Shown here in pieces: positions 11,147-47,258 of a stretch of DNA of 64,000 nt. The position numbers and the translations under genes were made by a program. The stretch is from Blastocystis hominis (taxonomy: Eukaryota > Sar > Bigyra > Opalinata > Blastocystidae), in the NCBI RefSeq assembly GCF_000151665.1, contig NW_013171818.1:181424-245423 (forward strand), read 5' to 3'. Under the pieces are notes generated by a model that ran no database searches, was not told the DNA's origin, and saw only the letters and a list, made by a program, of their open reading frames with translations. Position 1 is the first letter of the stretch. The number at the start of each line of letters is the position of its first letter.

Positions 11147-11207
11147 AAGGCGGCGAGAAAGAAGAAAGAAAGAAAGAAAGAAAGAAGGGGTTGTTTGTTG
11201 CGCGATT

Positions 11208-11225
11208 TGTTTGTTCGAACAAACA
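11208..11225. terminator. Palindromic poly(A)-site motif shared by two convergent genes
   Basis: TGTTTGTTCGAACAAACA is a perfect palindrome carrying the TGTTTGTT octamer on both strands. The bZIP gene ends 61 bp to the left and the minus-strand gene ends 4 nt to the right, so one site can serve both genes. In Blastocystis TGTTTGTT lies a few bases downstream of the poly(A) site. Confidence 0.6.
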
Positions 11226-11229
11226 GGCG

Positions 11230-11844
11230 AAGCGTCGTGGAGGCGGGAATGCATACCGGCCTCGCTGATGTCGCGGATTTGCTTCATTTGCGTGATCATC
11301 GCGTCCGCGTTGAAGATGTAGTCCGGATGCACCCAGATCGGGGGAGGAACGTCCGTGCCCGACTGCTCCTTCTTATTCTGGGAGTGAAAAAAGGCAAGAG
11401 AGATGTACGAAGAGCGAAAAACCCTTCTTGGGACGACGATCTTGACATGTATTGAATACTGTTGTGCATTGCTCTTCAAAACGGTTCAGAGAAGACTCCA
11501 CCTCGTCCAAGGCTTTCTATTGAAATCACAAGAAACACAGGGAGACACACATCGACAAAATCAATGATCGGGAAAAAGCAATTCGCTTCTTCCACCTTCT
11601 TCACAATGCCGTTGATTAGCACACGCCGCTGTTCAAGAAACTCGTCAACTAACTAAACGGTATTATCCAGACGAATCTCTACTGATTGTGGAATGACGCT
11701 CGTTTCTAGATTCGATTTATATTCAACTATCTTTCTTTGAGACTCATCAACCAAGTTCGTTAATTCGGCTATCAGCTGTACGAATTTCTCGTACATCTCT
11801 TTATATAGCTGATCTTGCACCTCTCCAATCTGTTTACTACTCAT
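11230..11844 (-). CDS. Small helical/coiled-coil protein, no encoded stop
   Basis: The first exon (11844 leftwards) begins MSSKQIGEVQDQLYKEMYEK and ends in LDNT. A 30-nt intron is followed by RRVLINGIVKKVEEANCF, a 34-nt intron, KALDEVESSLNRFEEQC, a longer intron of about 83 nt, and a last exon with TDVPPPIWVHPDYIFN and ITQMKQIRDISEAGMH. All joins keep frame. It is mostly helical and charged. The layout (helices plus a PPP segment) recalls small Mediator subunits, but I cannot assign it. No stop codon is encoded before the palindromic TGTTTGTT. An in-frame T at 11230 followed by four bases and then TGTTTGTT would give TAA on polyadenylation. Confidence 0.55.
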
Positions 11845-33802: not shown

Positions 33803-35096
33803 ATGGCCTTAAGTTATTCTGTGAGAAAACAGTACAGGGTGAGCGGTAAGATGTGATTTCTAGACTGGAGATTAATGCATCGGAGGTGGAGGGAGATGAG
33901 GACATCACGTATGACCCCGTGGAAAAGCTTCAGCAGCTGGGCATTAATGCGGGAGATATTCAAAAACTGAAAGATGGAGGATACTACACAATTGGAATGG
34001 TCTTGAAAACGCCTCAGAAAGTGCGTCCCTGAATTGCATATCAAAATACTAATAATGTAGGATTTGATCAACGTGAAGGGGCTCAGTGAAGCCAAGGTGG
34101 ACAAGATCATGCAGGCTTGTCGCACCATGCAAGTGAGTATGAACCAATTTCTCCACTCCTAGTCTACCGGAATCTTTTACACCGGCCGCGAAATGATGCA
34201 GCTTCGTCAGCGTGTGATCAAAATCACCACAGGAAGCAGCGACTTGGACACATTGCTAGGAGGAGGCATCGAAACCATGAGCATCACCGAGATCTTCGGT
34301 GAGTTCCGCACAGGCAAAACCCAACTCGCCCACACTCTCTGCGTGACCGCTCAGCTCCCCTCAGAGATGCACGGAGCGAACGGGAAAGTGATCTTCCTCG
34401 ACACGGAAGGCACCTTGTACGCTCCGCACCCACACTTTTAATCTCTCTAGCCGGCCTCAGCGCGTCGTGGAGATCGCAGGGCGCTACGGCCTCAACGGCG
34501 ACGAAGTGTTAGACAACATTCTGCTGGCTCGCGCGTACACACACGAGCAGCAAATGGACGTGATCACGGCCGCTGCGGCCAAGATCGTGGAGGACAACTC
34601 CCCCTATCACTTACTGGTATTGTTTGTTTTCACTCCTCAGATAGGTGGTCGACTCGATCACCGCGCTGTTCCGAGTGGACTACAGCGGACGCGGCGAACT
34701 CGCAGAGCGCCAGCAGAAGCTCGGAAGACACTTGAGTGCTTTGAAAAAACGTGGAAATGGGGAAATGGGGTGAGAGATAGTGGCGGAGGAGTTCAATGTG
34801 GCGGTGGTGATTATTAATCAGGTCACAGCGGACCCGGGCGCTGCGGCCATGGTGGAAATGGGGAAACGGAATGAGGGGTAGTTCGTGAAGGACACGAAGA
34901 AGCCGATCGGAGGAAATATCATCGCGCATGCTAGTACGACGCGGTTGTATTTTAAGAAAGGGAAGGGAGAGCAGCGAATTTGGTAGGGGAGGAGAAGGGA
35001 TGCGAGGGTAGCAAAGTGTACGACAGTCCTGATTTGGCAGAGAATGAAGCGACGTTTGCGATTGGACCGCAGGGAGTGATGAATGCAGATGGGTAG
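33803..35096 (+). CDS. DMC1: Meiotic recombinase DMC1
   Basis: A RecA-family strand-exchange ATPase for meiotic recombination. The helix-hairpin-helix domain is present ([16 protein letters not shown]). Walker A is [14 protein letters not shown] and Walker B lies in [29 protein letters not shown] and VTADPGA are DMC1-type rather than RAD51-type residues, and [18 protein letters not shown] completes the core. Eight or so introns of 28-40 nt are needed: 33832-33863, one near 34021, 34131-34160, about 34420-34453, a 28-nt one near 34619, 34751-34780, 34852-34881 and a 29-nt one near 34983. The stop is TAG at 35094-35096 and TGTTTGTT at 35136-35143. Confidence 0.93.
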
Positions 35097-42266: not shown

Positions 42267-43556
42267 ATGAACCAGAGATCGGTACGCTACGCCACCGCAG
42301 CGTTGAGACCTGGAACCGCTCTGAGGAGAACGCAGAATGCCGCGGCAGAGGAATCCAGCGAATCAAAGGACAAGCAGGGAGCAGGTGATATTGAGGTAGG
42401 CTCCAGATTTTGAAATGGATATGCTTACGACCAGAGAAAGCGTAGTTGGCAATTTTCCGATTTTGGGTTTCGAAAGAGTATTGGGGACGGTCAATATGGT
42501 ACGCAGCGTTTGAGAATCGAGTTAGACGATAGGGAAGGTGTTTCTGGCAAGAGAAAAAGAATCGAAAAAGGACGTGGCAATTAAAGTGATGTTTTTACCT
42601 CATTTTTGTGAGCGCGGGATTCAGGCCCAGCTTCGCGATGAAATACAGGCAAGGCGCATGGTTGTCAAGTCGATGGTAGATCCACTCGCACTTAATTCAC
42701 AATCGCATTACACGCGTCTACGGATGCTTTTTCGACAAGGACCGAGGTGGGTTGTCTCCTATGGGTTTTCTGTAGTCGGAATTGTGATGGAATACGCTCC
42801 GCTCGGTACGCTCTTCAACGTGATGATTAAAAACCAATGGCTGAATGGCATGCCTCTCAAATACGTGCAGCAAGTTGCTATCCAGGTCTATGCGTATTTT
42901 TCAAATGCCGTGCATTGATTCTAGCGCCCTGGCCTATTGCCATACACACAACGTCATGCATCGCGACTTAAAGCCGGAGAACATCCTCGTATTCAAAAAC
43001 TACAACGTCTCTTTTCTGTCCTTCCGCTTCCTTCTAGTCCGACGGTCCGAACGGCGACATGGAGGTCAAGCTCACGGACTTCGGGTGGTCGTGCGCGGTG
43101 GAGACGACGGGGCTTCGCACCACGAAGTGCGGCACAGTGAGCTACATGGCTCCCGAGCAGGCCGGGAAGTCGGGGTACACAATGAAGGCGGAGACGTGGG
43201 CCTGTACGCGTGGTAGCGGAGAGAAGTGATGCGTAGACGGCGTGTTGCTCTATGAACTCATCGTGGGAATCACCGCCGAGCAGGAAAGTGGGTTCTTAGG
43301 GAGGAGAGAGGTTGATGCGTAGCGGAGAAGAAGGATATTCGAGAGCTCTCGGAATCCTTCCGCAATCCGTACTACCAGTCCGACCAGATGCGCGCGGTGA
43401 ACAATCGACGGTTCATCCGCAACGCGCCGGACTCCGCGAAGGATCTCTGCATGAAGCTGCTGATCCAGGACCCCAATAAGCGCTTCTCCTTCGAGCAGAT
43501 CAAGTTTCACCCGTTCTTCTTAGAAGATTTCAGTGCGTGTGTCACGCCTCCGAAGT
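42267..43556 (+). CDS. Aurora-like protein kinase, stop completed by polyadenylation
   Basis: The N-terminal 45 residues are basic and Ala-rich; the kinase domain starts SIGDGQYGKVFLA. A 31-nt intron with GC-AG ends (42648-42678) restores DEIQ-IHSHLIHNRITRVYG; a 29-nt intron follows and then VGIVMEYAPLGTLF. Catalytic marks are VMHRDLKPEN and TDFGWS (the DFGWS form is Aurora-typical), then TKCGTVSYMAPEQ. Introns 43204-43236 and 43288-43322 both end in TGATGCGTAG. The last segment is FEQIKFHPFFLEDF. One join near 42885-42940 does not keep frame by eye and may hide a sequence error. No stop is encoded: after CCGAAG an in-frame T (43556) precedes GTTG and TGTTTGTT (43561-43568). Confidence 0.85.
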
Positions 43557-43568
43557 GTTGTGTTTGTT
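43556..43568 (+). terminator. T-GTTG-TGTTTGTT poly(A)/stop-generating site, kinase gene
   Basis: An in-frame T at codon position 1, four bases, then the octamer. Cleavage after the T would give TAA. The arrangement is identical to the one at 45000-45012. Confidence 0.65.
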
Positions 43569-44419: not shown

Positions 44420-45000
44420 ATGTCATTACCTTCTGGTTGGGAACGACACGAAAGCAAGAGTCATCCGGGTGCGTTTTACTACTTCAACCCGTAAAGACTC
44501 GGTGCTTAGGTGATGTGGTAGGGTTACCGGAGAATCAACATGGGACGAGCCAAGAGAGGAAGTAATCGATTGGTGCACAAACTAATCGGAATAGCTAACT
44601 CAGGTGCGCTGCTGTCATATCTTGAAGAAACACAAGTAGATTCTGTTAGGATCTTTGATTTGAAGTGGATCGAGAAGACCGTCTTCGTGGAGAAATCCGG
44701 TGATCACTTGTTCGAAGGAAGAAGCGACGCGGGAGTTGGCTGCGATCCGCCAGCAGATCATGAATTCCTCAAACCCACAGGAAACGTTCAAACGGATCGC
44801 TGAAAAGGAGAGTGATTGTAGCAGGTAGTTCGAATTTGATTTTGATTACACCAGCGCAAAGCGTGGAGGCGACCTAGGATTCTTCAAGCGGGGGCAGATG
44901 CAAAAGCCGTTTGAGGATTGCGCTTTCCGCTTGAAGGTGGGAGAGATTAGCAACATAATAGAAACGGACTCGGGTGTCCATATCATCCTCCGCATCGCGT
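44420..45000 (+). CDS. PIN1: PIN1-type peptidyl-prolyl isomerase, stop completed by polyadenylation
   Basis: A WW domain plus parvulin domain enzyme that isomerises phospho-Ser/Thr-Pro bonds. The WW domain is [21 protein letters not shown] then [10 protein letters not shown], split by a 31-nt intron. The parvulin part is [64 protein letters not shown] and [12 protein letters not shown]. Introns are 31, about 43, 30 and 30 nt. The family normally ends a few residues after HIILR. Here the frame runs on without a stop, but the T at 45000, four bases (GTTG) and TGTTTGTT (45005-45012) would make RIA-stop. Confidence 0.95.
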
Positions 45001-45012
45001 GTTGTGTTTGTT
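45000..45012 (+). terminator. T-GTTG-TGTTTGTT poly(A)/stop-generating site, PIN1 gene
   Basis: The in-frame T follows GCG (Ala) at the exact place where PIN1 proteins end. The octamer overlaps the 5' leader of the next gene, whose start codon is at 45031. Confidence 0.75.
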
Positions 45013-45030
45013 TTCAATCATTTTTTGAGT

Positions 45031-46869
45031 ATGTTGTCCTACGGTACACGCCGCTTGTACCGAGCAGGAGGATTCCTTTCCAAATCATTGCGCGCTTTTT
45101 CCATCGCTTCTGTGCGAACTCCTCGAATTCGAAGTGTACGTGTGGGAGAGAAGCATCTTTTTCCTACAGTCGTGGTACAAAAGCGATTTGTGGACGTCCG
45201 GAAGGAGTTGAAGGAGGTTCAGTGTTGCAGTGGTTGTGGAGTGAAGTTGCAGTATAAGGAAGAAAAGGACTATGGTTATATACCCAAGGACACACTCGTT
45301 TCCTATTTAGAAGCCGGAAAGAAGCCATTGTGTCAGCGGTGCCACAAAGTATGCGAGGTTTTTGAATCACTATGAATAGCTACGGTACAGCAGCACCGTG
45401 GAGGGAGATCAAGTTCCTGCCGCGATTCCTAAGGAAATAATCAATCGCATTCCGTTCAAGAAGCACTCGTTGATTCTGTTCGTGTGCGATGCAATGGATT
45501 TGCCCGTAAGCGATCAAATCCACTTCTACTTCTTTTAGGGAAGTATCATTCCCCATTTGAACGAATTGGTCCACGAAAAGCCAATGGTTGTGATCGTAAA
45601 CAAATCCGATCTGCTGCCTGTGAGTTCGCCCACCCCTCAAATGAAGCGCTGGGTCTTTGGTCTCTTCAAAGCTCACCACATCAACGTATTTTTCTCCTCC
45701 TCGCCATTCATCCCATCTAGAACATCAAAGACGTGTTCTTCGTGAGTTCGTTAAACAACATCGGGATCAGCAGCGTCCTGAACTACATCAACCACACTCC
45801 CTTCAAGCACGTCTATCTCATCGGCATGACCAACTGTTCCTCTCTCCTCTCTCTCCCTGATCACTAGCCGGGAAATCGTCCTTTCTCAACCAATGCATCG
45901 CCTTCACCAAGAGCAAAGTCTCCGTGTTCAATCTCCTCTCTCTCTCCGACGACGGCATTCAGCTCAACAAGCAAGGCATGATCGCCGATGACCACTTCGA
46001 TATCGATTATTGGAACACAGAAACAGGTCCATCCGAGCTCGAGTTTGAGCTCGAGCCCTCCGACAACCTCCTCACCATCTCTTCTCTCCCCTCCACCACG
46101 CTCGGCGTCACCGCGATCAAGCTCTACGGCGCTCGGTTTCTCCTGTACGACACTCCAGGCATCTGCCCTTCCGCCTATCGCATCCGTCTGCTCACTTCCA
46201 TGCTCTCCGAGGAGCAGAAGAAGGCCAAGCTGCTCTTTCCGCGCAAAGCGCTCGTCCCCACCGTGTTCTCCCTCCATCCAAACCACTCCATTTTGTTGGG
46301 CGCTTTAGGACACATCGATTACGTTGCAAACGAAAACGTTTTCGCTTTTGCGTTTTTTTCACTTAGACCAATCCGCTCATTGGATATAGTTATTCGCCTT
46401 TGTCTCTCCATCTATGCAAAACAGAAAACGTTCCTTCTCTCCTCACAAAACACGCAGGAACGCTTTTCGTTCCGCCCTTTTCGGAGGCGCAGTATTTGGC
46501 ATCGGGAGGGATCGTGCACCAGAGCGATTTCCCGCTTTCTCGTGTGCTCAACACGCCGAGTGAAGTGCGAAACACGCTGTTGCCGGCCTCTCCGAGCAGT
46601 TTGAAATACACGGCGTTTTTGGATGTGAGCATTGGAGGGTTCGGATGGATCGCTTTTTTCGCGCAGGGTGAGAGACGAGGGAAGGAACTGAGAGAATAGG
46701 TGGGGATAATACCAGGAAGAAGTATGCGCAGATTATGGCGGGAACGTTGCGGCTGAACGCTGTGAAGGGGTTTGAAGTGGGTTTGGAGGAAGGGAGTGAG
46801 AGGTAGTTGTATCCTAGACCACCGCTGTTGACGAGTATTCCCGAGAAGATGCGAAAACTCAAGAAGTAG
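45031..46869 (+). CDS. NOA1: NOA1/YqeH-type circularly permuted GTPase
   Basis: A mitochondrial ribosome-assembly GTPase family. The N-terminus is a basic presequence ([20 protein letters not shown]). A zinc module follows (CSGCGVKLQ...YIPK...CQRCHK). The GTPase motifs come in permuted order: G4 VNKSDLL first, then [11 protein letters not shown]1 GMTNSGKSS (split by a 32-nt intron inside the P-loop) and G3 YDTPGI. The C-terminal domain includes [12 protein letters not shown] and [15 protein letters not shown]. Introns are mostly 29-33 nt, the last being 30 nt after KGFE. The stop is TAG at 46867-46869, followed by a (TAG)n run and TGTTTGTT at 46910-46917. Confidence 0.92.
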
Positions 46870-46891: not shown

Positions 46892-47258
46892 TTTTCTTTT
46901 GTTCTTTCGTGTTTGTTGTTGTTGGAAATGAGAGAGATGGTTGGGGATCATTCATTCGCAAGCTTCAACCCATTTTTCATCGATCCATACTATAATTCCT
47001 ATTCCTTTCCTATTTAAAATAAGAATAATAAATAGACAAACAAGTAAAAGAACAGAATGGGGTAAGAATTCAATTATACATAAATCAAATACAGAGGATC
47101 AATTTATCCCCTTCCACTCTCAGAATAGGAAATGTTCCCAACTCTACTCTTATTCACTTCGATTTGATTTAAGAGGTAAGTTCGCGTTGAAATGCTCTGT
47201 AGTTTACAACGCTCTTCTTTGTCGTTGTTTTCAATGAGCCAAACCTAATTCTTCGTAG

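What the first reader, a model, noticed from the sequence alone, without database searches (positions are those of the whole stretch)
44420..45012. PIN1 gene with no encoded stop: TAA would be made by polyadenylation
The conserved C-terminus (SGVHIILR) ends at RIA, and the frame then continues without a stop. Exactly there an in-frame T (45000) is followed by four bases and TGTTTGTT. In Blastocystis a share of mRNAs gain their stop codon by poly(A) addition a few bases upstream of this octamer. This is the cleanest case in the window because the family end point is well known.
Basis: partly seen in the sequence, partly recalled or inferred. Interest (0 to 1): 0.82.

Follow-up and report, generated by a model that had tools for sequence, protein, structure and literature searches.

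The report
PIN1 gene finished by poly(A) tail
A gut protist's PIN1 gene has no stop signal in its DNA and very probably gets one when the poly(A) tail is added to its message, a trick already published for hundreds of genes of this organism.

Summary
A five-exon PIN1 gene (149 aa, WW + rotamase) runs from 44420 to T45000. T45000 is followed by exactly four bases and an exact TGTTTGTT (45005-45012). The frame then stays open for 85 codons, to TAA 45255 inside the next gene. The predicted end, two residues after the conserved Arg, is where 116 of 120 listed homologues end. Poly(A) addition after T45000 would make UAA.

This fits the published Blastocystis mechanism (372 of 2,419 ST7 genes with mapped tails), so PIN1 is a new individual case of a known phenomenon. 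No transcript was available; the tail is inferred.

I disfavour it: the GTPase has its own ATG and a presequence-like start, such bridges arise by chance, and the octamer at exact spacing would then be about a 1-in-5,000 accident.

The deposited Blastocystis Nand II 'pin1-like' model (566 aa) does join both genes, but elsewhere: it lacks PIN1's last ~21 residues and the GTPase's first exon. I read it as a gene-model chimera, and a hint that PIN1 lacks an encoded stop there too.

The parts
44420..44490 (+). PIN1 exon 1 (ATG at 44420; WW domain)
44522..44561 (+). PIN1 exon 2
44604..44635 (+). PIN1 exon 3
44666..44824 (+). PIN1 exon 4 (rotamase domain)
44855..45000 (+). PIN1 exon 5, ending in [10 protein letters not shown] plus T45000, predicted last base before the poly(A) tail
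   Evidence: tail position inferred from the published four-nucleotide rule
45005..45012 (+). TGTTTGTT, downstream poly(A) element
45255..45257 (+). first encoded in-frame stop (TAA), 85 codons beyond the predicted end
44999..45029 (+). 31-nt GT-AG segment whose removal would fuse PIN1 in frame to the downstream gene (rival reading)
45031..46869 (+). downstream YqeH/NOA1-type GTPase gene, 533 aa in 8 modelled exons, encoded stop TAG 46867-46869; its own octamer at 46910-46917

Best explanation
This is an ordinary, intact Blastocystis PIN1 (WW plus parvulin-type prolyl isomerase) gene without a genome-encoded stop codon. The element UGUUUGUU at 45005-45012 directs cleavage and polyadenylation after U45000, and the first two A's of the tail complete UAA. 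The protein then ends HIILRIA and the mRNA has no 3' untranslated region. Shown here: gene structure by homology, absence of a stop, in-frame T, motif, spacing, family end point. Inferred: the organism's name, the cleavage position, tail addition, termination, and any factor that reads the element.
For: Exact octamer at exactly the published distance from an in-frame T. Predicted end two residues after the conserved Arg, as in 116 of 120 listed homologues. No stop for 85 codons, the extension running into the next gene in another frame. Genome-wide, T stands at the cleavage place in 4298 of 7304 octamers against 3241 of 7304 four bases further upstream. In the 264-kb sample, at the 51 sites with T the frame in which T+AA gives TAA is open for 80 or more codons in 10, against 3 and 1 in the other two frames; at the 41 sites without T, 2, 1 and 3. 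Published: 372 of 2,419 mapped ST7 genes, and 2,333 of 2,419 tail sites with the motif (up to two substitutions) at this distance; in an ST7 reporter, changing the motif and two upstream T's lowered expression 324-fold.
Against: No transcript shows the tail here. A 31-nt in-frame GT-AG bridge to the next gene exists; only 2.6% of random frame pairs have one so tight, although these limits were set after seeing it. Its length is typical, and 2 of the 11 introns modelled here also start GTG. A deposited Nand II model joins PIN1 to the GTPase, and the ST1 gene set was corrected with RNA-seq and 58% examined by hand. Most genes with a mapped tail (about 85%) have an encoded stop, so the prior for any one gene is low.
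Confidence: 0.92

Rival explanations
1. PIN1 and the downstream GTPase are one gene: a 31-nt intron (44999-45029) is removed, giving an in-frame fusion, and the octamer inside it is not used.
For: The segment restores the frame without a stop; 31 nt is the published median intron length for ST7 and within the 30-44 nt of the 11 introns modelled here; two of those also start GTG. A deposited Nand II protein, P0121, carries WW, rotamase and MMR_HSR1 matches.
Against: P0121 joins at other points and lacks PIN1's last ~21 residues and the GTPase's first exon. Among the 120 proteins listed of 194 and the 20 found, only P0121 has both parts. Blastoise PIN1 is annotated alone, 160 aa. The GTPase has its own ATG, nine basic and no acidic residues before position 40, like an N-terminal organelle-targeting signal (inference). 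The acceptor GAG is seen in 0 of 11 modelled introns. A bridge of 27-45 nt exists in 23.6% of 4,000 random frame pairs. The octamer at exact distance would be coincidence.
Confidence: 0.04
2. A sequencing or assembly error, or a recent stop loss, hides an ordinary stop codon at the end of PIN1.
For: One assembly only was seen; a single changed base could remove a stop.
Against: The octamer sits exactly where the created-stop reading needs it, and the rest of the gene reads without a defect. An encoded stop would leave the octamer's exact phase unexplained.
Confidence: 0.02
3. Translation continues to TAA 45255, giving a PIN1 with an 85-residue tail.
For: The frame is open that far.
Against: The extension reads the GTPase's first exon in another frame, and the 120 listed homologues have no such tail: none ends more than 4 residues after the conserved Arg.
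Confidence: 0.01

Closest known systems
Polyadenylation-created stop codons of Blastocystis nuclear genes (Klimes et al. 2014, PMC4159000; Gentekaki et al. 2017, PMC5608401)
   Same: In-frame T, no encoded stop, TGTTTGTT exactly four nucleotides downstream, tight spacing to the next gene, chimeric or extended gene models as a by-product.
   Different: Nothing in mechanism. PIN1 is not named in either main text; supplements were not read. No tail has been seen here.
UAA completed by polyadenylation in mitochondrial mRNAs (as described in PMC4159000)
   Same: T or TA ends the gene and the tail completes UAA.
   Different: Organelle transcripts, other 3'-end machinery.
PAY*, Tyr-to-stop conversion by alternative polyadenylation in mammals (as described in PMC4159000)
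   Same: Nuclear mRNA cut inside a codon, which the tail turns into UAA.
   Different: There it makes a shortened isoform next to a normal one; here it would make the full-length, and only, end of the protein.

Membership tests
Blastocystis genes with poly(A)-created stops | no encoded stop at the end of the coding frame | tested here: met
   next in-frame stop is TAA 45255; family end point at 44999
Blastocystis genes with poly(A)-created stops | in-frame T, TA or TG directly before the tail site | tested here: met
   T45000 in frame
Blastocystis genes with poly(A)-created stops | TGTTTGTT or a near variant exactly four nucleotides downstream | tested here: met
   exact motif at 45005-45012
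Blastocystis genes with poly(A)-created stops | transcripts whose A-tail starts at that base, without another 3' end | not testable with these tools
   no ESTs or RNA-seq available
Blastocystis genes with poly(A)-created stops | the organism is Blastocystis | tested here: inconclusive
18.71 Mb against 18.8 Mb published for ST7; octamer 1 per 2,561 bases against 1 per 2,792 published (counting method may differ); relatives P0004 and P0121 are Blastocystis. Very likely.
PIN1-type parvulin | N-terminal WW domain plus rotamase domain, about 150-165 aa | tested here: met
   Pfam WW 39.3 bits and Rotamase 81.9 bits, both above cut-off; human PIN1 best solved match, E 2.9e-40
PIN1-type parvulin | conserved active-site residues (role recalled, not from a call) | tested here: met
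   H42, R51, R52, C99, S140 and H143 are invariant among the 7 sequences aligned
PIN1-GTPase fusion protein | both complete domains joined in one conserved protein | tested here: not met
   only P0121 joins them, and both of its parts are incomplete

The most novel reading that the evidence does not exclude
The poly(A) element sits inside a usable 31-nt intron, so competition between cleavage at 45000 and splicing of 44998 to 45030 would choose between free PIN1 and a PIN1-GTPase fusion: a regulated switch built on a created stop codon.
Probability: 0.03. Interest if true: 0.75.

Novelty: new member of a known kind. Interest (0 to 1): 0.3.

Why it matters
It adds a conserved gene with a very firm family end point, found once in this genome, to the genes that depend on the tail for termination. 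It also shows the annotation damage: the deposited Nand II PIN1 model is probably a chimera with its neighbour. If PIN1 lacks a stop there too, the dependence is older than the split between the two subtypes, and the gene becomes a simple marker for dating this habit.

Tried and rejected
No protein model from the window's own genome was recognised in the lists of three protein searches; these consider only proteins of 0.55-1.75 times the query length, and searches list 120 of 2227 and 120 of 194.

A de novo collection of introns was dominated by chance matches (740 loci, flat base composition) and was dropped; splice-site counts rest on the 11 introns that I modelled in PIN1 and the GTPase, fitted to frame and homology, not confirmed by RNA.

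Rfam scan of the window: 0 matches at gathering score. The open frame before 11230 (-) has only DOCK-C2 at E 0.067. P0122 and P0124, from metagenome assemblies, match only the GTPase part and say nothing about the junction.

Literature: at least two of 'Blastocystis', 'Pin1', 'parvulin' gave 188 papers; the 20 listed hold no 'Blastocystis'. What I saw: PMC4159000 parts 1-2 of 3 and found passages; PMC5608401 found passages and the intron section; PMC6395660 and PMC3129679 found passages only; others only as search listings; no supplements.

Full report
What is there. The window lies in an unnamed 18.71-Mb genome of 40 contigs. Genome size, octamer density and the Blastocystis names among its relatives point to Blastocystis, most like subtype 7. 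The plus strand from 44420 encodes a complete PIN1: 149 residues in five exons with four GT-AG introns of 31, 42, 30 and 30 nt. Pfam gives WW and Rotamase above cut-off, and human PIN1 is the best solved relative. The genome search found this copy only.

The end. The frame reads [10 protein letters not shown], then T45000, GTTG, TGTTTGTT (45005-45012). No stop follows until TAA 45255, which lies in the first exon of the next gene. Of 120 homologues listed, 116 end exactly two residues after the conserved Arg, as this protein does if it ends at 44999; the other four end 0, 3, 4 and 4 residues after it. The octamer occurs about once per 5,100 positions per strand, so an exact copy at just this place by chance is about 1 in 5,000 (genome average; T-rich stretches would have more).

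The rule checked genome-wide by sequence alone. T stands five bases before the octamer in 4298 of 7304 cases (58.8%), against 3241 of 7304 (44.4%) nine bases before it and 1948 of 5456 (35.7%) for the pattern read backwards. Tandem TGTT runs are counted repeatedly in these numbers. T followed by G at the cleavage place occurs 1573 times, against 604 times four bases upstream; G follows in 36.6% of the T cases, against 717 of 3006 (23.9%) where the base is not T. In 264 kb (window plus 20 stretches of 10 kb), 92 sites passed the filters (one per overlapping run, at least 700 bases before and 60 after). At the 51 with T, the frame in which T+AA makes TAA is open for at least 80 codons in 10, against 3 and 1 in the other frames; at the 41 without T the counts are 2, 1 and 3. 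In the window, 19 of 35 octamers have T there, and 0.89 matches of T-N4-TGTTTGTT are expected.

Mechanism. Klimes et al. mapped 2,419 ST7 tail sites; 2,333 have the motif, with up to two substitutions, exactly four nucleotides downstream, and 372 genes get their stop from the tail, 359 UAA and 13 UGA (PMC4159000). ST1 has 1,693 such genes (PMC5608401). In an ST7 reporter, changing the motif and two upstream T's lowered expression 324-fold (PMC6395660). PIN1 meets every part of the rule that can be read from DNA. A cut one base further downstream would still give a stop (TG+A), so the T|G context would forgive that slip; that is my inference. The genome-wide T|G excess could have this reason, or be a plain U|G preference of cleavage.

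The rival that had to be faced. A 31-nt GT-AG segment, 44999-45029, would fuse PIN1 in frame to the downstream gene. That gene encodes a 533-aa YqeH/NOA1-type GTPase (MMR_HSR1 above cut-off; best solved match YqeH 3ec1, E 1.9e-31, then NOA1). It has its own ATG at 45031, nine basic and no acidic residues before position 40, an encoded stop TAG at 46867 and its own octamer at 46910. Of 4,000 random frame pairs 31 nt apart in this window, 23.6% have at least one bridge of 27-45 nt and 2.6% have one within tight limits chosen after seeing this case. So the bridge needs no special cause, but it is a mild coincidence against my reading. Its length is typical, and 2 of the 11 introns modelled here also start GTG; its GAG acceptor is seen in none of them (8 TAG, 2 CAG, 1 AAG).

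The Nand II model. [quoted passage not shown] ATCC 50177/Nand II, 566 aa; that this isolate is the published ST1 genome is recalled. Taken at face value it favours a fusion, and the ST1 gene set was corrected with RNA-seq, with 58% of models examined by hand. But its junction is different: PIN1 breaks off after CAFNLK and goes on with LRFSG, which matches the start of exon 2 of the GTPase modelled here. PIN1's last ~21 residues with SGVHIILR, and the part matching the first 106 residues of the GTPase, are missing; the rotamase match stops at profile position 80 of 97, against 95 here. In window coordinates the skipped stretch would be 44937-45379, 443 nt, against a published median intron of 31. 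This is what a gene finder may do when it finds no stop at the end of PIN1; the ST1 authors name chimeric genes and false introns among such errors. So the two genes appear to be neighbours there too, and PIN1 there probably also lacks an encoded stop. Blastoise PIN1 is annotated alone, 160 aa, ending at the family end point; whether its stop is encoded is unknown.

Verdict. It is a new individual member of a known kind; 3'-end reads are the missing proof.

Noticed in passing
window 43316-43568 (+): An open frame whose end resembles a protein kinase C-terminus (Pfam Pkinase E 8.4e-05, 22.5 bits, below the 31.7 cut-off; match reaches profile end 263/263 twelve residues before the end) stops at T43556 + GTTG + TGTTTGTT, the same 13 letters as at PIN1: a likely second tail-made stop.
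   Followed up: partly
window 38265 (+), 51829 (+), 35480 (-): An encoded TGA begins exactly at the predicted tail base, in frames open for 97, 57 and 29 codons; a tail there would turn TGA into TAA, as published for 90 ST7 genes with UAG or UGA. Coding status not tested.
   Followed up: no
whole genome G000: T followed by G straddles the predicted cleavage place 1573 times against 604 times four bases upstream: a U|G cleavage preference, or tolerance for a cut one base late (TG+A = TGA).
   Followed up: partly
L012 near 979 (+) and L007 near 7007 (+): Long open frames (291 and 116 codons) run into T-N4-TGTTTGTT without an encoded stop at that place, though encoded in-frame stops follow after 4 and 9 codons; candidates for tail-made stops. 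In L007 a second frame is equally open.
   Followed up: no
window 11187-11230, both strands: Octamers on opposite strands lie within about 40 bases; the minus-strand one follows an open frame of some 85 codons ending T|AA without a significant Pfam match.
   Followed up: partly
window 34621-34628 (+): An octamer with G, not T, at the tail place lies just downstream of a frame that looks, by eye, like a RecA/RAD51-type recombinase; it may be an unused copy of the motif, perhaps in an intron.
   Followed up: no
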